This document shows positions 6,431-46,336 of a stretch of DNA of 64,000 nt, piece after piece. The position numbers were made by a program, and so were the translations under genes. The notes below the pieces were generated by a model that ran no database searches, was not told where the DNA came from, and saw nothing but the letters and a program-made list of their open reading frames with translations. Source of the stretch: Polyangium spumosum (GTDB lineage Bacteria > Myxococcota_A > Polyangia > Polyangiales > Polyangiaceae); contig NZ_WJIE01000001.1 in NCBI RefSeq assembly GCF_009649845.1, positions 620,001 to 684,000 of the forward strand, read 5' to 3'. Within the stretch, counting starts at the first letter, position 1; every line of letters begins with the position of its first letter.

Positions 6431-8782
6431 TCAGGTGACGAGCTCCGAGAACCGCGCGCGGAGGAGCGCGCTGCCCGCGTCGAGGGCGCAGCTCTCGCAA
6501 TACCCCATTGCGATGAGCCGATCGAGCGCGGCGAGCGCGTTCTTGCGTTGCTCGTCACGCAGGCTGCCGACGAGGGGCTCGTCGCGCAGGCCCTGGGCCT
6601 TGTGGTTCGCCCGATCCCGCAGGATGGCCACCAGATCGCGGCAGAGCAGCGCCACGGCCTTGCGACGCTCCGTGAACACGGCCTCGCGCAGCTTGCGGAT
6701 CTGCTGCGGGAAGACGACGGCGTTGACGACCTTCTCCCCGGGGTGATCGATCGCCCACGCCGCGATCATCGCGATGAGCCCGCGGCGATGATCGTCGTGC
6801 TTGCCGCGCACGCCGAGCAGGCCCTCGATCTCGCGCATCATGCGCTCGTCCGCGCCCTCGAAGTCGCCGGTGTGCGGGTTCCGGATCTTCTCGCCCTTCA
6901 CCCAGGCGCCGACGTGTTGCACGTACCTGTCGAAGAGCTCGCCGTAACGCGTCTCGTCGACGAGCCCGCTCGCCGAACGCATCTCCTCCTCGAGCGTGTC
7001 GTAGAGCCGCGCGCGCGCGACGTCGCGGAAGAGCTTGTGGTCGTGGTAGCCGCCCGCGAGCGGGCGCTCCTTGAGCCAGTCGTACTCCGAGGTCCGCTTG
7101 CAGAGCTCGTCGAGCTCCTGGAGGACGGCGAACGGCGAGAGGCAGCCGTGATCGCGGCTCTGCGCCGCGTCGAGCAGGAGCGAGCGGATCTCGCGCGGCG
7201 AGACCCCCGAGCGCCCCTCGAAGTCGACGGTGGCGTCCGTCTCCTGGTAGAGCGCGCGGATGTTCGCGCGCAGCATCTTCTGCGAGTCGCCGTCGAGCCG
7301 CTCCGGCGGCGTGCCCGTCGCGTACGCTTCCATCTTCTCCGCCGCCGTCAGCGACGAGACGATCGGCGCGAGCGCCTCGGGATAACGCTTCGCCTCCGGC
7401 TGCCGCATGCGCGTGAGCACGGCGAACTGCGCCGCGACACGCGTCGCGTGGGGCGCTACGTGCCGGGTGACGAACGGCGCGATCTGCGCGTCGTAGATGC
7501 GCTGCTCGTCGAGGTAGCTCCGGAGGTAAGGCGCGCGGAGCAGCTCGAAGCGACCGCGGAAGCTCGGGAACTCGGGGTGCTCGCGGAAGGCGTTCAGGTG
7601 GATGTCGTTCGCGCTGCCGATCATGACGACGTTCGTCTGGATCGTCTGCTGCGGCAGGCTCACCTCGCCCGTCTCGAGCGTGAGCTGCAGGTACCGGAAC
7701 GCGTCGAGTGGCCTCTTCAGGAGATCGCTGAACTCGAGCACGCCGCCCGAGGCCTCGACGAGATCGCCGTGCGCCTCGAACAGAGTCCGCGCCTGGAGCG
7801 CCGTGGGCAACGCGGCGAGCGAACGATCGGCCGTGATCTGCCGCTCGCCCGCGTCGACGCTGAGCTCGGGCCCGATGGTGACGGCGCCCGTGCGGTAGCG
7901 CCGCGAGATGAACCAGCGCTCGACCTGGACGTGCCGCAGCACGTCGGCGAGCGAGCCCTCGTACGAGACGAGCAGCGCCTCGACGATCTGCTGGTTCTTG
8001 TGCGAGAGTTTCCCGCTCATGAGCCAGTCGGGCGGCGCATCGGCGAGCCCGGCCTCGTCGTAGAGCTTCTTCAGGAGCTCGCGCCGCTCGGGCACGGGGA
8101 TCAAGAAGAGCGGATGATCCCGCAGCTCGCTCACGAGGCGCGCGTCGATCTGCGTGTCCTCGAGGTGCGCGAAGCTGCCGACGATCGGCGCCGCGGCCCC
8201 TTCGCCGCCGAAGCCGATCGCCCCGCGTGTCGTCTTGCGGCTCGGGAACACCCAGTGGAAGCGGTAGATCGCGCCCTCGTCGAGCGTCGAGTAATGCTCG
8301 AGCGCGCGCAGGACGCAGCCGGCGATCGTGCTCTTGGCCGATCCGTTCGGGCCGTGCATCAGGATGAGCCGATTCGCCCGCCCCTCCTGCACGAAGTTCG
8401 AAAGCGCCCGGTAGATCTCGCCCTGCAGCTCCTCGTGTCCGATCAGCGCCGCGTCGCGCCCGTGGTACGGGGCTCGCCGCTCGCCGCGTTCTGCGCGGGG
8501 CGGCTCGGGCTCCCAGGGCAGATCGAAGAGGCGGTAGCGCGTGCACTCGCCCCAGGGGCGCTTGACCGCGTACGTCCCGAAGTGGTCGAACATGTCGCGC
8601 ACGTAGCGGGCGGCATCACGCCCGTGGCGCGCGGGATCAGACGCGAAGAGCTCCAGGTACTCCTGGAAGGAGAGCAGGCGCCGCCCTTGCTGAAAGCGGC
8701 GCTGCATCGAGGTGACCAGGTTGGAGAGCTCGGCCAGCGCGAGCTCGGACCTTCGGCTTGCCCGGGCGTCGGACTCTTTCAC
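6431..8782 (-). CDS. prkA: PrkA-family AAA+ Ser protein kinase/protease-like protein
   Basis: A 783-residue protein of the PrkA family. N-terminal 'FQEYLELFASDPARHGRDAARYVRDMFDHFG' (about 39-69) is typical of the family. Walker A is GPNGSAKS at 144-151, and the AAA+ core extends to about residue 430 with 'NVVMIGSANDIHLNAF' as sensor region. The C-terminal PrkA domain includes 'DYDWLKERPL'-like and 'KVVNAVVFPQQIRKLREAVF' segments. PrkA proteins act in stress and sporulation control, described as a kinase in enterobacteria and as an ATP-dependent protease in Bacillus. This copy is longer than the roughly 640 residues usual for the family. In myxobacteria a link to development is plausible but inferred. 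Likely co-transcribed with the upstream DsbD-N-like lipoprotein (21-bp gap) and downstream tatD. Confidence 0.9.
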   Translation of the reverse strand: MKESDARASRRSELALAELSNLVTSMQRRFQQGRRLLSFQEYLELFASDPARHGRDAARYVRDMFDHFGTYAVKRPWGECTRYRLFDLPWEPEPPRAERGERRAPYHGRDAALIGHEELQGEIYRALSNFVQEGRANRLILMHGPNGSAKSTIAGCVLRALEHYSTLDEGAIYRFHWVFPSRKTTRGAIGFGGEGAAAPIVGSFAHLEDTQIDARLVSELRDHPLFLIPVPERRELLKKLYDEAGLADAPPDWLMSGKLSHKNQQIVEALLVSYEGSLADVLRHVQVERWFISRRYRTGAVTIGPELSVDAGERQITADRSLAALPTALQARTLFEAHGDLVEASGGVLEFSDLLKRPLDAFRYLQLTLETGEVSLPQQTIQTNVVMIGSANDIHLNAFREHPEFPSFRGRFELLRAPYLRSYLDEQRIYDAQIAPFVTRHVAPHATRVAAQFAVLTRMRQPEAKRYPEALAPIVSSLTAAEKMEAYATGTPPERLDGDSQKMLRANIRALYQETDATVDFEGRSGVSPREIRSLLLDAAQSRDHGCLSPFAVLQELDELCKRTSEYDWLKERPLAGGYHDHKLFRDVARARLYDTLEEEMRSASGLVDETRYGELFDRYVQHVGAWVKGEKIRNPHTGDFEGADERMMREIEGLLGVRGKHDDHRRGLIAMIAAWAIDHPGEKVVNAVVFPQQIRKLREAVFTERRKAVALLCRDLVAILRDRANHKAQGLRDEPLVGSLRDEQRKNALAALDRLIAMGYCESCALDAGSALLRARFSELVT

Positions 8783-8803
8783 CCCGGGAGTTTAGCCGCG
8801 AGC

Positions 8804-9316
8804 TCACTTCACGTCGACGTCGACCTCGAGCGGGAGCTTCTCCATCACGCAGTTCGCCTCGCTGCACACGCTCATCGAGAGCGTACCGGCGATCTTCGCT
8901 TTGCCCGCCCGGGACGCTACGAACGGCACCTTGAACGATCCCTTCTTCTCGTCGAACTTCCCGTCCTCGCGCTTGAGCACGGGCTTCGGATACGAGACGC
9001 CTTCGGGCGCGGGATCGGAGAGCTTGAACTTGTACGGGTACTGCTCGTTCATGTGATACGCGCCCTTCGGCACGATCGAGATCTCGAGCGTCCCTTCCTT
9101 GCCCGCCGCGTACGGGCCCGTCGCCTTCATCTCCACCGAGTACGTGTCGCTCTCGGCCTTGGGGCCCTTCGCGACGGCCGCGGCGTTCGTCTCTTCGCCA
9201 CGCTGCGTGGCGGCTTCGCTCCGACCACATCCGGAGGCCAGCACGAACGTGAGACCCGAGAGGGCCACGAGGCACGCGAGGGTGGAGGCGGGACGGCGCA
9301 TCGAAGGCTTGTTCAT
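8804..9316 (-). CDS. Lipoprotein with DsbD N-terminal-like domain
   Basis: A 170-residue protein. The signal peptide ends in a lipobox (LASGC, Cys30), which fixes the ATG at 9316. After a short Ala/Glu linker the domain reads as an immunoglobulin-like beta sandwich: 'LEISIVPKGAYHMNEQYPYK', 'FKVPFVASRAGKAKIAGTL', then 'SVCSEANCVMEKLPLEVDV'. The order 'proline-rich strand, Tyr-His, CxxxxC near the C-terminus' resembles the DsbD N-terminal (disulfide-relay acceptor) domain, whose two cysteines exchange thiols with partner proteins. No DsbD transmembrane or thioredoxin domains follow, so if redox-active it would be a stand-alone periplasmic domain. It sits 21 bp upstream of prkA on the same strand. 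Confidence 0.65.
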   Translation of the reverse strand: MNKPSMRRPASTLACLVALSGLTFVLASGCGRSEAATQRGEETNAAAVAKGPKAESDTYSVEMKATGPYAAGKEGTLEISIVPKGAYHMNEQYPYKFKLSDPAPEGVSYPKPVLKREDGKFDEKKGSFKVPFVASRAGKAKIAGTLSMSVCSEANCVMEKLPLEVDVDVK

Positions 9317-9432
9317 GAGGGCTCGGGATACCACGGCGGTTTGCTCCTGACCACGTGCGGAAGGTCGACTCGAACGTGCGTACGGCGCGGGTTCGACGAC
9401 GCCTCGGCCCAAGGCATGCTCGAGCTCGGTGT

Positions 9433-10683
9433 TCAGCGCGCCGCAAACGCCGCGACGGCCCCGAGCGCCACGACGAAGAACACGATGGCGGGAAAAAGCC
9501 AGCGTGGTCGTGTGGTCGAGGCCAGGGCAGCGTCGTCCTTCGGGAACACGCCTCCCGCGGAGGGTGCGGGCGCGGGCGCGCCGGCGAAGGCGGCGTCCAT
9601 CGCGCTCAGATCAGCGGCCGAGCCTTGCTCCTCTTCGAGCCGCGCGAGCACTCCCGGCAACCCCGCGCGGATCCGCTCGGCGAGCTCGGCTTGTGTCATC
9701 CGAGCCCACTGCGCGTGGCTGCCCTTGAGCCCGTACGCGTGGCCGAGCCGATCCGCGAGCGCGCCGACCGTGGGGATGCGTTTGTCCGGCTCCTTCTCGA
9801 ACGCCTCCTCCATCACCACGTCGAGCGTGCGCGGCACGCCGTGCGCGCGGCCCACTTCGCTCGGCGGCCGGTGCGGTCGCGTCATGATGCTGAGCAGGAT
9901 CTGCGGGCCGGACTTGCCCTCGTACGGGACCTTGCCCGTGAGGCACTCGTAGGTGATCGCCGCGAGCGACCAGACGTCGGCGCGATGATCGAGCGTGGCG
10001 AGCCCCTGCGCTTGCTCGGGCGACATGTAGAAGGGCGAGCCGATCGTCGTGCCGACCGCGGTGAGCTTCTTGGCGCCCACGGAGTTGTCGCGGACGCTGC
10101 CGAAGTCGAGCAGCTTCACCTCGTCGCCGCCGCAAAGGAAGATGTTGTCGGGCTTGAGATCGCGGTGGACGATCTTGCGCTCGTGCGCGCCTTCGAGGCC
10201 GAGCGCGACCTGCGCGACGAAGCGCACGACGCGCTCGGGCGGCAGCACGCCTTCGCGTCGCATGAGCACGCGGAGCTCCTCGCCTTCGAGGTACTCCATC
10301 ACGGTCACGTAGTTGCCCTCGGCGTCGTGCTCGAACGCGTGCACGCGCACGACGTGCTCGTGCGGCAGGACCGCGCTCACCTCGAACTCACGCTTGAAGC
10401 GCTCGATCGAGACCGGATCCTGCGCGACCTCCTCGTGCAGGATCTTCAGCGCGACCGAGCGCCTCTCCTCGCGATCGAGCGCCTGATACACGCGGCCCAT
10501 GCCGCCCTCGGCGATGACGCGGAAGATCTGGTAACGACCGCCGCACACCGCCCCGCCGACGCGCGGATCGCTGGGATCCGGCTCCGGCGAGGCCTCGTCG
10601 GTCCCCGCGAGCGTCTGCCCTTCGAGCGGACAGACGTCCGCGTCGTCTTCGTAGAGGCGATGGCAGGTCGGGCAGGCTTTCAC
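9433..10683 (-). CDS. Membrane-anchored Ser/Thr protein kinase with N-terminal Cys motif
   Basis: A 416-residue Hanks-type kinase. The first 20 residues contain CPTC (4-7) and a further Cys-Pro at 18-19, a truncated zinc-ribbon-like start. The kinase domain runs from about 51 to 310 with a Gly-rich loop (AEGGMGRVY), Lys80, HRDLKPDN (173-180) and DFG (193-195); 'GSPFYMSPEQAQG' is the activation/P+1 region. A short Ala/Pro-rich linker leads to one C-terminal transmembrane helix (about 395-413), so the kinase faces the cytoplasm with almost no extracellular part. No sensor domain is present. It follows the zinc-ribbon coiled-coil gene by 40 bp on the same strand. Confidence 0.93.
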   Translation of the reverse strand: MKACPTCHRLYEDDADVCPLEGQTLAGTDEASPEPDPSDPRVGGAVCGGRYQIFRVIAEGGMGRVYQALDREERRSVALKILHEEVAQDPVSIERFKREFEVSAVLPHEHVVRVHAFEHDAEGNYVTVMEYLEGEELRVLMRREGVLPPERVVRFVAQVALGLEGAHERKIVHRDLKPDNIFLCGGDEVKLLDFGSVRDNSVGAKKLTAVGTTIGSPFYMSPEQAQGLATLDHRADVWSLAAITYECLTGKVPYEGKSGPQILLSIMTRPHRPPSEVGRAHGVPRTLDVVMEEAFEKEPDKRIPTVGALADRLGHAYGLKGSHAQWARMTQAELAERIRAGLPGVLARLEEEQGSAADLSAMDAAFAGAPAPAPSAGGVFPKDDAALASTTRPRWLFPAIVFFVVALGAVAAFAAR

Positions 10684-42943: not shown

Positions 42944-43339
42944 ATGTCGACCGGGGAGGCGCTCGCCCGGTACGGCGTCGCGTTCGTCCTGACGCAGGTG
43001 ATCGAGGTGCCGATCTACCAACGCGCCCTCGGCGTGCGACCACGCGTGGCGTTCGGCGCAAGCGCGATCACGCACCCGATCGTGTGGTTCGTCCTGCCCG
43101 CCGTGTGGCGGTGGATGTACGTGGCGGCGATCCAGATGGATCGGCGTTTCGTGCTGGGCGAGCTCGGGTACTACCTCGGCTACGGGGTGCTCGCGGAGGG
43201 GTTCGCCGTCGCCGTGGAGGCGGCGTACTTCTGGAGAGCGGGCATCACGGCGAAGAGGGCGTTCGGCTGGGCGCTCGTGGCGAACGCGGTGAGCTCGCTC
43301 CTGGGGCAAGCGTTGCGGGCGGGGACGGGGTGGCCTTGA
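42944..43339 (+). CDS. Small polytopic membrane protein
   Basis: A 131-residue protein with three to four hydrophobic segments (about 7-24, 35-58, 68-90 and 100-120). Features include 'TQVIEVPIYQRAL' with an intramembrane Glu, and 'SAITHPIVWFVLP' with a His-Pro in the second helix. No known domain was recognised. Its start lies 5 bp after the previous membrane protein gene; the closeness and shared intramembrane His suggest a two-subunit unit, which is inferred. Confidence 0.75.
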   Translation: MSTGEALARYGVAFVLTQVIEVPIYQRALGVRPRVAFGASAITHPIVWFVLPAVWRWMYVAAIQMDRRFVLGELGYYLGYGVLAEGFAVAVEAAYFWRAGITAKRAFGWALVANAVSSLLGQALRAGTGWP

Positions 43340-43364
43340 GGGTGCTCGCCCGGGCGAAGATGGG

Positions 43365-43370
43365 TTGACA
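43365..43370 (+). promoter_or_regulatory. Consensus -35 box upstream of the AAA/HNH cassette
   Basis: A perfect TTGACA lies 66 bp before the ATPase ATG at 43436. No good -10 hexamer is found at 16-18 bp; TGCTAG at 43391-43396 would need a 20-bp spacer. The cassette may therefore have its own promoter, but the element is incomplete. Confidence 0.3.
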
Positions 43371-43435
43371 CCTGCCCGGGGGCGCGATGTTGCTAGCGAA
43401 CGAGCCTGGCTGAGCCCATGAAGTGACGGAAGCAG

Positions 43436-44854
43436 ATGTACATCCGCAAGATCCTCATCGAGAACATCCGCTGCTTCGACCGGGTCGAGCTCGACCTGAC
43501 GCGGCCGGATGGGTCGCTGGCCGGCTGGACGGTGCTCGCCGGGCGGAATGGGACGGGAAAGTCGACGCTGCTGAAGGCGATCGCGCTGGCCGTGGCGGGG
43601 CCGGACGTCGCGAGGAGCTTGCAGAAGAGCTTTGTCGATTGGGTCCGGACCAGCCAACGCAAGGCGCAGATCACGACGGAGCTGGAGTGCAGCGTTGGCG
43701 ATTGGATCGGTGACGACGAGGCCTACCGCGACGAACGCACGCATTTCTGGACCGGGCTCTCGTGGGAGATGTCTTCAGGAGACGGCGAGCCTTTCCTCTG
43801 GACGCCACAAGACGTCGTCCTCCTCGTCCCATCCCTGTCCGAGTACCCACCCGAGCCACATCGATACCGCGGTCCCTGGGACAATAATCCCTCTGGATGG
43901 TTCATTGCGGCATACGGCCCCCTCCGCCGACTTGGTTTTCGCGACGACTACAAGCAGCCAGGGCCCCAGATGCAGGCAGGGCTTGCGAGTCTCTTCGACG
44001 AGGACGTCACGCTGGCAGAGTCGATCCACTGGCTGAAGGACATCCACGCGATCCGGCTCGATCTGCAAGATCGCGCAAGCAGGACGAGCGAAGCAGAGGC
44101 CAAAACGTTGCTCGATGACGCGCGCAAGCATGCTTTGGTTTACGAGAACGTCCTTTCGCTGCTCGATGACGGTCTTCTCCCTCCTGGCTCCTCCGTGATC
44201 TCCCTCGACATGCAGCGCGGGCTGCTGGTGAAACGAGACGGCGTCACCCTCACGCTCCGCAGCCTCAGCGATGGTTACCGAGCGGCGATCGCCCTTGTCT
44301 TCGACATCGTCCGGCAGATGTATCGTCGCTTCGGCGAAAGGCTCGACATCTCGCGCCGCGAGGTCGACGGCAAACACGTGGTTCAGGTCGCCCACCAAGG
44401 AATCGTCCTCATCGACGAGGTCGACGCTCACCTCCACGTCTCCTGGCAACAGCGGATCGGGTTCTGGCTCAAGGAGCACTTCCCGAACGTTCAGTTCATC
44501 GTCACGACGCACAGCCCCTTCGTCTGCCAGGCGGCCGATCCGAAGGGCCTCATCCGCTTGCCCGTGCCCGGCTCGGGAGAGCGCGTCGAGCACGTCTCCG
44601 AAGACCTGTACAACACGGTTGTCTACGGCGATGTCGACGACGCCGTCATGACGGCGTTGTTCGGGCTCGAGCGTGCCCACTCGGATGAGGCCGAGGCGCT
44701 ACGCAGCCGCGTGGCGAAGCTCCAGGCGAAAATGATGCGTGGTCACGCAACTCCCGACGAGAAGGAGGAGATGTACCGCTTGTCGGCGCTGCTGCCGAAG
44801 ACGGGGAGCTTCCTCGTCCAGCAGACGCTGCGCAAGCTGGGAGAGTCGGGGTGA
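43436..44854 (+). CDS. ptuA: AAA ATPase of a Septu-like defence system (PtuA-like)
   Basis: A 472-residue SMC/OLD-type ABC ATPase. It begins 'MYIRKILIENIRCFDRVELDL', with Walker A GRNGTGKST at 36-44, an insertion of about 230 residues with helical character, signature SLSDGYRAA (276-284), Walker B 'IVLIDEVDAHLH' with catalytic Glu328, and the H-switch TTHSP (His359). No TOPRIM nuclease domain is present. The gene is followed with a 4-nt GTGA overlap by an HNH nuclease gene. An ATPase of this class paired with a C-x2-C HNH protein is the definition of Septu type I (PtuA-PtuB), a system shown to protect against phage. Other two-gene AAA/HNH systems exist, so the name is by similarity of plan. 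Base composition is visibly less GC-rich than its neighbours. Confidence 0.8.
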   Translation: MYIRKILIENIRCFDRVELDLTRPDGSLAGWTVLAGRNGTGKSTLLKAIALAVAGPDVARSLQKSFVDWVRTSQRKAQITTELECSVGDWIGDDEAYRDERTHFWTGLSWEMSSGDGEPFLWTPQDVVLLVPSLSEYPPEPHRYRGPWDNNPSGWFIAAYGPLRRLGFRDDYKQPGPQMQAGLASLFDEDVTLAESIHWLKDIHAIRLDLQDRASRTSEAEAKTLLDDARKHALVYENVLSLLDDGLLPPGSSVISLDMQRGLLVKRDGVTLTLRSLSDGYRAAIALVFDIVRQMYRRFGERLDISRREVDGKHVVQVAHQGIVLIDEVDAHLHVSWQQRIGFWLKEHFPNVQFIVTTHSPFVCQAADPKGLIRLPVPGSGERVEHVSEDLYNTVVYGDVDDAVMTALFGLERAHSDEAEALRSRVAKLQAKMMRGHATPDEKEEMYRLSALLPKTGSFLVQQTLRKLGESG

Positions 44855-45621
44855 GAAAGTTGCGAAGGGAGCCGCTGAGCGAACACGCGACGCGGATCCT
44901 GTGGAAACAAACCGTCAAGATCGTGGAGGCAGGTCGCTCGGCGCCCTCGCGCAGCAAGCTCGCGAAGGCTCGAAAGGACGAGGCCAGGCGGCTCTGGAGA
45001 CAGAAGGCCGGAGCGACGTTCAACGAAATCCGAGCGGCGCTGAAGGAGATGGCGCCCGGCGTCGAGCGCTGCATGTACTGCGAGAGCAACGAGGGCACGG
45101 ACATCGAGCACTTCTGGCCGCAGAAGCAGGCTCCCTGCCGCGCCTTCGACTGGAGCAACCTCCTGCTCGCGTGCAGCGCCTGCAACAGCAACCACAAGCG
45201 AGATCGTTTTCCGCGCAAGCACGGACAGCCGCTCCTGATCAACCCGACGGAGGACGATCCGCTGGACCACCTCGTCCTGACGCCGATCGGCAAGTTCGTT
45301 CCCCTCACGGACAAAGGAGAGAACAGCATCCCCGTGTTCGGGCTCGACCGCGGCCCTCTGGAACGAAGCCGCGTCATCGCCTGGGCCGCTGTCGATGGCT
45401 TGATCGTGCGCTACGCGAACGCTTGCAAGAGAGGCGATTTTGCGTCGGCGCTGGAGACGCAACGAGCGCTGTGCGAGTACCCCCAGGTGAGCGTCTTCGC
45501 TGCGATCCTCCGCGTCGCGGAGAGCAGGGTCGCGGAGGATTTCCTCTCCATCTACCTCTCCCCCGAGTGCCGCGCAGCCCTCGTCGCGTACCCAGAAATC
45601 AAGAGCTGGCTCGACGGGTGA
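44851..45621 (+). CDS. ptuB: HNH endonuclease of a Septu-like defence system (PtuB-like)
   Basis: A 256-residue protein. A basic N-terminal helical region (1-65) precedes an HNH domain with zinc-binding pairs C74-x2-C77 and C108-x2-C111. The nuclease residues are in 'GTDIEHFWPQKQ' (Glu86, His87), 'WSNLLLACSACN' (Asn103) and 'NSNHKRDRFP' (His115). This is the pattern of PtuB and retron-associated (TIGR02646-type) HNH proteins. A C-terminal region of about 110 residues is unassigned. The GTG start overlaps the ATPase stop by 4 nt, indicating coupled translation and a fixed stoichiometry. The stop overlaps the convergent Lgt-like gene by 23 bp. No retron reverse transcriptase or msr/msd region is present, so this is a retron-free Septu-type pair. 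Confidence 0.8.
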   Translation: MRKLRREPLSEHATRILWKQTVKIVEAGRSAPSRSKLAKARKDEARRLWRQKAGATFNEIRAALKEMAPGVERCMYCESNEGTDIEHFWPQKQAPCRAFDWSNLLLACSACNSNHKRDRFPRKHGQPLLINPTEDDPLDHLVLTPIGKFVPLTDKGENSIPVFGLDRGPLERSRVIAWAAVDGLIVRYANACKRGDFASALETQRALCEYPQVSVFAAILRVAESRVAEDFLSIYLSPECRAALVAYPEIKSWLDG

Positions 45622-46336
45622 CCGGCTCCCTCCGCGCACTCTCCGACACGAGCAAGACAAGCCCCGCCGGGATCAACACCCCGAGGCAAACCCCCTGCGC
45701 CGCCGTGAGCCCGAGCCACCTCGGATCCGGCCCGCGGCCGAAGTCCTCGGCGCGCAGGAAATCCAGCCCGAAACGGAGCGCTCCGTACGCCAGCGCGAGC
45801 ACACCCGTCACCACGCCCGGCCTCGCCGCGCGGCGCGACACGACGACCACGAGCCCGACGAGCAGCGGCGTCGCCATCCACTCGAGCAAGCCGAGATCGA
45901 AGCGCGCGCCGCCCGGGTATCGCACGGCGAAAAAGGACGTGGAGAGCCGGCCGGGATGATCGTGCGCGAACGCGCAGGCCGCGCGGGCGAAGAACCACCC
46001 AAACGGAAAGGCGAACGCGATCGCGTCGGACGCGCCGAGCACGGGCATGCGGAGCGCCCGCGCGAGCAGCACGAGGCCCACGAGCCCGCCGAGGCAACCA
46101 CCCGCCGACGAGAGCGTCCCGCCCCCACCCACGAGCCGACCCACGCCGTACGCGCCGACGATCGCAGCGATCACCGTGCCGATCGCCAGCGCCTCGATCG
46201 CCCCCTTCGAGCCGAGCCCGAGCAGGCGGGCGCGACGCACCATCACGAGGTGGTTCACGATCACCGAGAGCGTGAGCAGGAGACCAAATGCTTGGAGCCC
46301 AAACGGAAGTGTCGGAAACGTGAACCAAGGAATCAC
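45599..46336 (-). CDS. Lgt-like (prolipoprotein diacylglyceryl transferase family) membrane protein, degenerate
   Basis: A 245-residue protein with about seven transmembrane segments and the overall Lgt layout ('FPTLPFGLQAFGLLLTLSVIVNHLVMVRRA', 'AYGALRFGLDFLRAEDFG', 'LTAAQGVCLGVL'). Lgt transfers diacylglycerol from phosphatidylglycerol to the lipobox Cys. Two catalytic regions differ: the H-G-G-L motif reads AGGCLGG, and the signature G-R-x-G-N-x-x-N-G-E reads 'ARAACAFAHDHPG'. The HDHPG form suggests a distinct subfamily with other chemistry. A canonical Lgt must exist elsewhere, given the many lipoproteins. The 3' end overlaps the HNH gene by 23 bp in convergent orientation. Confidence 0.75.
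   Translation of the reverse strand: MIPWFTFPTLPFGLQAFGLLLTLSVIVNHLVMVRRARLLGLGSKGAIEALAIGTVIAAIVGAYGVGRLVGGGGTLSSAGGCLGGLVGLVLLARALRMPVLGASDAIAFAFPFGWFFARAACAFAHDHPGRLSTSFFAVRYPGGARFDLGLLEWMATPLLVGLVVVVSRRAARPGVVTGVLALAYGALRFGLDFLRAEDFGRGPDPRWLGLTAAQGVCLGVLIPAGLVLLVSESARREPVTRRASS

What the first reader, a model, noticed from the sequence alone, without database searches (positions are those of the whole stretch)
43436..45621. Septu-like anti-phage cassette (PtuA-type ATPase plus PtuB-type HNH nuclease)
An SMC/OLD-like ATPase with full Walker A (36-44), signature (276-284), Walker B with Glu328 and H-switch overlaps by GTGA with an HNH protein having two zinc Cys pairs and Glu86-His87/Asn103/His115. 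This is the Septu architecture, without any retron RT. The cassette is visibly less GC-rich than flanking genes, consistent with transfer. No other defence gene flanks it, so it may be a lone island between a membrane-protein pair and an Lgt-like gene.
Basis: partly seen in the sequence, partly recalled or inferred. Interest (0 to 1): 0.8.

Follow-up and report, generated by a model that had tools for sequence, protein, structure and literature searches.

The report
Septu phage-defence gene pair in Polyangium
This is an ordinary two-gene Septu anti-phage system that comes and goes at one exact spot in Polyangium genomes, and the middle of its ATPase gene looks like a swappable cassette, which could help show what Septu senses.

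Summary
Window 43436-44854 is a full-length PtuA (PADLOC, 457 bits) and 44851-45621 a nearly full-length match to PtuB (226 bits), overlapping by GTGA; the next-best system, mREase_IV, scores about half. Predicted folds match solved E. coli Septu PtuA (Z 28.9) and PtuB (Z 16.8). The genome's two reverse transcriptases lie on other contigs, so this is Septu type I. The pair is a ~2.3-kb cassette between a small membrane-protein gene and an Lgt-like gene. The site is filled in 2 of 5 congeners (Polyangium) and empty in 3 of 5; a filled and an empty genome are sisters. New here: ptuA behind Walker A (residues ~70-155, in one allele to ~320) looks like a recombining cassette. At two separate Septu loci in the genus it is replaced while the rest of ptuA, ptuB and the flanks stay alike; synonymous change is near saturation inside and low outside. 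That it recognises the phage trigger is inference. What PtuB cuts here is open.

The parts
43341..45646 (+). Inserted cassette as defined by the empty site: window 43340 and 45647 abut exactly in G004 and G005, and within about ten bases in G003 in the blastn pieces (no target-site duplication seen by eye)
   Evidence: blastn pieces and junctions in L038, L039, L040 against the window
43365..43397 (+). Conserved leader TTGACA-N18-GTTGCTAGC upstream of ptuA, a candidate promoter carried by the cassette
   Evidence: Same motif in the three occupied alleles, not at the C13 paralogue; the only exact match in the window and genome, but the pattern was taken from this very sequence; the sigma-70 scan did not list it. 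Weak evidence
43436..44854 (+). ptuA: SMC/ABC-type ATPase of Septu
   Evidence: PDLC00269 E 1.7e-137, residues 1-466 on model positions 1-442 of 446; model pLDDT 84.7; 8eea_D Z 28.9, rmsd 4.4, 399 aligned
43646..43900 (+). Variable module of PtuA, residues 71-155; between this allele and that of G001 the exchanged stretch runs to about residue 320 (window ~43628-44401)
   Evidence: pS 0.78 inside against 0.31 outside, 0 of 200 shuffles; blastn gap 43646-43894 against L037; much the same stretch is the gap at a second Septu locus
44851..45621 (+). ptuB: HNH nuclease of Septu, GTG start, 4-nt overlap with ptuA
   Evidence: PDLC00317 E 1.1e-67, residues 1-231 on model positions 1-221 of 244; model pLDDT 93.1; 8eea_G Z 16.8, rmsd 2.8, 201 aligned
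45070..45195 (+). HNH/zinc core of PtuB: C74, C77, E86-H87, N103, C108, C111, H115
   Evidence: Sequence; PF01844 above its cut-off, 23.3 against 21.4 bits; C74, C77, H87, N103, C108 and C111 invariant in 41 aligned PtuB that I chose, H115 not
42944..43339 (+). Left neighbour, small membrane-protein gene; the insert begins right behind its stop codon
   Evidence: Present in all five congeners
45599..46336 (-). Right neighbour, Lgt-like gene; its last codons and stop lie antisense to the end of ptuB
   Evidence: PF01790; 241-245 aa in the three occupied genomes, 260 aa in the three empty ones

Best explanation
It is a stand-alone (type I) Septu defence system. Shown here: a complete PtuA-PtuB operon under purifying selection, on a cassette present in some strains and absent in others at one exact site. 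From work on other Septu and retron I-A systems: PtuA forms an ATPase oligomer that holds PtuB; on infection PtuB's HNH centre cuts a nucleic acid, growth is impaired and few phages are produced. Inferred: PtuA's variable module just behind Walker A (residues ~70-155) is the surface that meets the phage trigger. Strains replace it by recombination while keeping the ATP-binding ends, the C-terminal part and PtuB. The target here may be tRNA-Tyr, as in Septu EcB88 and retron-Eco7, or DNA, as reported for Septu of E. coli ATCC 25922.
For: Profiles and folds. Linkage: 78 of 80 related ptuA loci have a PtuB-like ORF (phmmer E <= 1e-3) on the same strand at or just behind the end of ptuA; in L085 and L106 it is in two pieces. 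Type I: no RT nearby. Presence/absence at one site. Selection: dN/dS 0.12 and 0.28 between G000 and G002. Module swap. Mechanism in relatives: Septu EcB88 cleaves the tRNA-Tyr variable loop after infection, and changing PtuA K43 or D316 or PtuB H75 or N91 abolishes immunity (PMC13096335, passages). The counterparts by motif here, not by alignment to EcB88, are K42, D327, H87 and N103; H and N are 16 apart in both. Retron-Eco7 PtuAB depletes tRNA-Tyr (PMC11555353, passages). A PtuA hexamer with two PtuB is cited in PMC12198126 (passages).
Against: No phage test of this system was found, and it is only about 20% identical to the solved systems, so target and trigger cannot be read off. NCBIfam's PtuA and PtuB cut-offs are not reached (120.7 of 500 and 48.0 of 150 bits), nor is TIGR02646 (40.9 of 52.15); the first two are models of the retron Ec78 effectors. 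The module was less conserved than PtuB in only 39 of 55 pairs, and 13 of 19 close pairs show no synonymous jump in it. In E. coli the close alleles of one Septu type showed no swap.
Confidence: 0.93

Rival explanations
1. It belongs to PADLOC's mREase_IV pair (type IV, methyl-directed restriction) and not to Septu.
For: mREase_IV models are second for both proteins, 228.1 and 122.6 bits.
Against: Septu models score 457.4 and 226.5 bits, over the full length of PtuA.
Confidence: 0.04
2. It is the effector pair of a retron (type I-A retron, 'Septu type II') whose RT sits elsewhere.
For: PtuA/PtuB are also retron effectors. The genome has two RVT_1 genes.
Against: The RTs are on contigs C6 and C12, not beside the pair. 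The insert has about 95 bases before ptuA and 25 behind ptuB, so no room for an RT. No Rfam family reached its gathering score in 30000-60000, though Rfam need not cover an unknown msr-msd.
Confidence: 0.02
3. A housekeeping ATPase/nuclease pair of the genus.
For: Same locus in three of six genomes; purifying selection.
Against: Absent at the site in 3 of 5 congeners, one of them sister to an occupied genome; G003 has no PtuA match at E 1e-30 and no PtuB match at E 1e-5.
Confidence: 0.01
4. For the module alone: residues 70-155 diverge fast because they are loosely constrained or under diversifying selection, with no exchange of DNA.
For: 62 of 63 close pairs are less alike in 71-155 than in 321-472, many without a jump in synonymous change. 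Indels in the alignment and low model confidence at 124-144.
Against: Between G000 and G001 synonymous change is high across the better-aligned codons 161-320 as well, and low on both sides. At the second locus one ~209-bp gap interrupts ~11.9 kb of 93-94% identity.
Confidence: 0.2

Closest known systems
Septu type I of E. coli (PtuAB complex, PDB 8eea/8ee4/8sux)
   Same: ATPase plus HNH nuclease, same folds over nearly the full length (PtuA Z 28.9, PtuB Z 16.8)
   Different: 21-22% identical. PtuA here has a loop at residues 121-140 that only about a third of its own relatives share (occupancy 0.35); not compared with E. coli residue by residue
Septu EcB88 (PMC13096335)
   Same: Two-gene stand-alone Septu; Walker and HNH residues shown essential there have counterparts by motif here
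   Different: tRNA-Tyr cleavage shown there, untested here
Retron-Eco7/Ec78 effectors PtuA/PtuB (PDB 9kjx, 9nnb, 9vh1)
   Same: Same effector pair by fold (PtuA Z 29.1 for 9nnb_D; PtuB Z 16.2 for 9vh1_F)
   Different: There neutralised by RT and msDNA (PMC11555353, passages); no RT lies near here
PADLOC mREase_IV pair
   Same: Related ATPase plus HNH pair
   Different: Scores about half of the Septu models

Membership tests
Septu type I | PtuA-type ATPase with Walker A, signature, Walker B and H-switch | tested here: met
   PDLC00269 E 1.7e-137, full length; motifs in sequence
Septu type I | PtuB-type HNH nuclease directly behind ptuA | tested here: met
   PDLC00317 E 1.1e-67; 4-nt overlap
Septu type I | No reverse transcriptase in the operon (RT present makes it Septu type II / retron I-A; PMC8565338 passages) | tested here: met
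   The insert has room for the two genes only; own-genome RTs are on other contigs
Septu type I | Fold of solved PtuA and PtuB | tested here: met
   8eea_D Z 28.9, rmsd 4.4, 399 aligned; 8eea_G Z 16.8, rmsd 2.8, 201 aligned
Septu type I | Patchy presence in close relatives, as expected for defence genes | tested here: met
   Site occupied in 2 of 5 congeners, empty in 3 of 5
Septu type I | Protection against phage | not testable with these tools
   No experiment possible
Retron type I-A (Septu type II) | RT gene next to ptuA | tested here: not met
   The genome's two RVT_1 matches are on C6 and C12, none on the window's contig
Retron type I-A (Septu type II) | msr-msd RNA next to ptuA | tested here: inconclusive
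   No Rfam gathering match in 30000-60000; Rfam may not hold such a family
NCBIfam PtuA/PtuB (retron Ec78 effectors) | Curated score cut-offs 500 and 150 bits | tested here: not met
   120.7 and 48.0 bits
PADLOC mREase_IV | Best match to mREase_IV models | tested here: not met
   Second best for both proteins

The most novel reading that the evidence does not exclude
PtuA carries a specificity cassette: the stretch behind Walker A (residues ~70-155) is a hypervariable, recombining module that sets which phage signal Septu answers to, swapped between strains much as HsdS recognition domains are (comparison from recall), while the ATP-binding ends, C-terminal part and PtuB nuclease stay fixed.
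Probability: 0.4. Interest if true: 0.68.

Novelty: new member of a known kind. Interest (0 to 1): 0.42.

Why it matters
As a Septu system it is one more member of a common family, here in Polyangium with a clean filled/empty site. What could matter is the module: the passages I read do not say what stand-alone Septu senses, and a review table gives 'Unclear' for PtuAB in what I take to be the activation column (PMC12198126, passages). A natural pair of alleles at one locus that differ mainly in ~70 to ~250 residues of PtuA makes the sensor question testable by chimeras.

Tried and rejected
E. coli check of the module: an RT-free E. coli pair (L129) has 13 matching records in E. coli genomes. 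Five are close: four match over the whole pair (95.7-100%) and one (ZYB62) over 78%, its ptuA starting behind an IS66 element. None shows a module swap. The other 8 are 60-80% identical; 7 of the 8 are unmatched over the first 331 bases or more, which may be divergence. This neither supports nor refutes generality. A second E. coli type (L130) was listed but its alleles were not compared.

Other dead ends. The sigma-70 scan gave no promoter in the leader. The leader motif occurs once in the genome, so it is not shown to be a general promoter. Plasmid records hold no near-identical copy of the cassette; the best protein match on a plasmid is 41%. Phage records hold only partial matches (8 records, none over 80% of the query). 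My first HNH pattern found 13 of 78 PtuB, mostly because it demanded E-H where many have D-H; the wider one found 72 of 78. An RT profile made from the two own RTs found none in the ORFs of the 80 loci, but had no independent positive control. The donor of the G001 module was not found: the best of 49 other sequences is 39% identical there. In one search the rows for the upstream kinase against G001 and G003 came out misaligned (12% and 18% identity) and I dropped them. G000-G002 shows a short patch of high synonymous change at residues 381-400 (0 of 200 shuffles) that I cannot explain; a control pair, G004-G005 of the third locus, shows no clear interval (154 of 200 shuffles reach its score). 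ptuA and ptuB are more alike in DNA between G000 and G002 (93% and 90%) than the flanks (86%), but synonymous change (0.21, 0.18 against 0.21-0.32 in seven neighbours) gives no strong case for a recent transfer.

Full report
What is there. Two ORFs on the + strand, 43436-44854 (472 aa, ATG) and 44851-45621 (256 aa, GTG), overlap by GTGA. GC is 0.635 and 0.646 against 0.702-0.749 for seven neighbouring genes.

What it is. In PADLOC the first protein matches a PtuA model over its full length (457 bits, E 1.7e-137) and the second a PtuB model over residues 1-231 of 256 (226 bits, E 1.1e-67); mREase_IV models come next with 228 and 123 bits. NCBIfam's PtuA and PtuB, models of the retron Ec78 effectors, and TIGR02646 are matched below their cut-offs (121 of 500, 48 of 150, 41 of 52 bits). 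Predicted structures (pLDDT 84.7 and 93.1) match solved PtuA and PtuB chains: PtuA to 9nnb_D (Z 29.1) and E. coli Septu 8eea_D (Z 28.9, rmsd 4.4, 399 aligned; tied), PtuB to 8eea_G (Z 16.8, rmsd 2.8, 201 aligned). SMC and Rad50 heads follow for PtuA at Z about 19-21.

No retron. No Rfam family reached its gathering score in 30000-60000. The genome has two RVT_1 genes, on contigs C6 and C12. PADLOC calls RT-bearing clusters Septu type II (PMC8565338, passages), so this is type I.

Linkage elsewhere. A scan of the genome-contig collection gave 421 relatives of PtuA, of which the best 80 were kept; by their titles most are Actinomycetota, with myxobacterial, other proteobacterial and a few further loci. 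In 78 of 80 a PtuB-like ORF follows on the same strand (in L085 and L106 in two pieces); 72 of 78 carry the zinc/HNH pattern. Where a start could be placed, 44 of 74 pairs overlap by 4 nt (I took the start nearest the stop, which favours overlaps).

Host and site. Two named records match the unnamed congeners in contig length and PtuA identity: Polyangium fumosum DSM 14668 (L047, 95%; taken to be G002) and Polyangium sp. 6x1 (L048, 69% in the best segment; taken to be G001). So the genus is Polyangium; the species of the window is not known. Five other genomes of the genus were held (G001-G005). The Lgt-like gene is found in all six. ptuAB sits at the same place in G001 and G002. In G004 and G005 window positions 43340 and 45647 abut exactly in the blastn pieces; in G003 the pieces end at 43339 and 45650 with four bases between them. 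In the empty genomes the Lgt-like gene is 260 aa and overlaps the tail of the left gene by 95 bases; in the occupied ones it is 241-245 aa and ends antisense to the end of ptuB. So the cassette lies in the seam between two converging genes, leaving the left gene whole and only changing the tail of the right one. I saw no target duplication and no mobile gene in it. Unrooted flank trees group G002 with G004 and G003 with G005 (support 100 on both flanks), with G000 on the longest branch. As G002 is filled and G004 empty, presence changed at least twice on this tree.

Further loci. G000 has another ptuAB pair on C13 (PtuA 55%, PtuB 47%). G002, G004 and G005 share a third, more distant pair (PtuA 36-37%) at one syntenic place.

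The variable module. Between G000 and G001, PtuA is 93% identical in residues 1-70 plus 321-472 and 52% between them. Synonymous change (pS) is 0.08-0.45 in 40-codon windows of the ends, 0.31 in ptuB and 0.21-0.31 in six neighbouring genes (a seventh was dropped as misaligned), but 0.65-0.81 in codons 81-320. A scan puts the edges at residues 73 and 316 for G000-G001 and 65 and 322 for G002-G001 (0 of 200 shuffles each). Fast protein change alone does not saturate synonymous sites, so I read this as DNA exchanged with a divergent allele; in the poorly aligned part (81-155) misalignment adds to pS, but codons 161-320 align better. At the third pair's locus, G002 and G004 are 93-94% identical over about 11.9 kb with one gap, L042 8540-8748, which is residues ~70-139 of that PtuA; G005 shows the same gap against G002, and G004-G005 none there. 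Scan edges for G002-G004 are 70 and 270, 0 of 200 shuffles. The left edge, just behind the Walker A helices (42-54, 56-62), is nearly the same in both events.

How general. Among 85 PtuA sequences (80 loci, the window, C13 and three of the third pair), 63 pairs are at least 80% identical in residues 321-472; in 62 of 63 residues 71-155 are less alike. These pairs are not independent. Against PtuB the module is less alike in 39 of 55 pairs. Of 19 pairs with pS below 0.40 in the C part, 6 pairs from four lineages have 0.65 or more in the module and 13 do not. In two of these lineages (L074-L089, L073-L081) ptuB is raised too (0.57, 0.55), so only the two Polyangium events are clean. In E. coli I saw none.

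How it likely works. Published: Septu EcB88 needs PtuA Walker residues K43/D316 and PtuB H75/N91 and cleaves the tRNA-Tyr variable loop on infection (PMC13096335, passages). Retron-Eco7 PtuAB depletes tRNA-Tyr, while Septu of E. [quoted passage not shown] A PtuA hexamer with two PtuB is cited in PMC12198126 (passages). By motif, K42, D327, H87 and N103 are the counterparts here (H and N are 16 apart in both). I infer the same scheme: the ATPase oligomer holds the nuclease, infection sets it off, growth is impaired. I further infer that the module senses the trigger, since it is the part exchanged while ATP-binding ends, C-terminal part and nuclease are kept. This last step is untested.

Literature on the module. 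A search for 'PtuA' with 'hypervariable' found 0 papers; 'Septu' with 'recombination', 'anti-phage' and 'allelic' found 6, of which I saw only the listing and abstract starts. The PtuAB structure paper (NSMB 2024) is not held, so I cannot say that it does not mention the variability.

Verdict. The pair is an ordinary Septu system, well placed and likely functional. The swapped module is the one point worth following.

Noticed in passing
L041 (G000:C13:120000-139000), ptuA 8699-10054 (-): Second Septu pair in the same genome with its own HNH partner, between a ParA/HTH-like gene and a DUF1015-like gene (names by eye).
   Followed up: partly
L042, L043, L044 (G002, G004, G005): Third Septu pair at a syntenic locus in three Polyangium genomes, with a ~209-bp exchanged stretch in ptuA of G002.
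   Followed up: yes
L127 (G000:C6) and L128 (G000:C12): Two reverse transcriptases with YADD motifs and long N-terminal parts in the open frame, perhaps myxobacterial retron RTs (guess by eye).
   Followed up: no
L046 5553-9122: In a same-family genome (G023) a PtuA-like ATPase lies in one 1189-codon open frame behind a long N-terminal part that looks by eye like a nucleoside-phosphorylase-type and TPR-like sensor, followed by an HNH-like ORF: a possible Septu fusion, or two genes in one open frame.
   Followed up: no
window 44576-44635 (ptuA codons 381-400): Short patch of high synonymous change between G000 and G002 (pS 0.85 inside, 0.18 outside).
   Followed up: no
L131 (E. coli ZYB62 plasmid): An E. 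coli Septu ptuA lacks its 5' part next to an IS66-like element.
   Followed up: no
G004:C1:7052292-7052639: A further PtuB-like HNH ORF (33%); (E 1e-30) reported no PtuA match near it.
   Followed up: no
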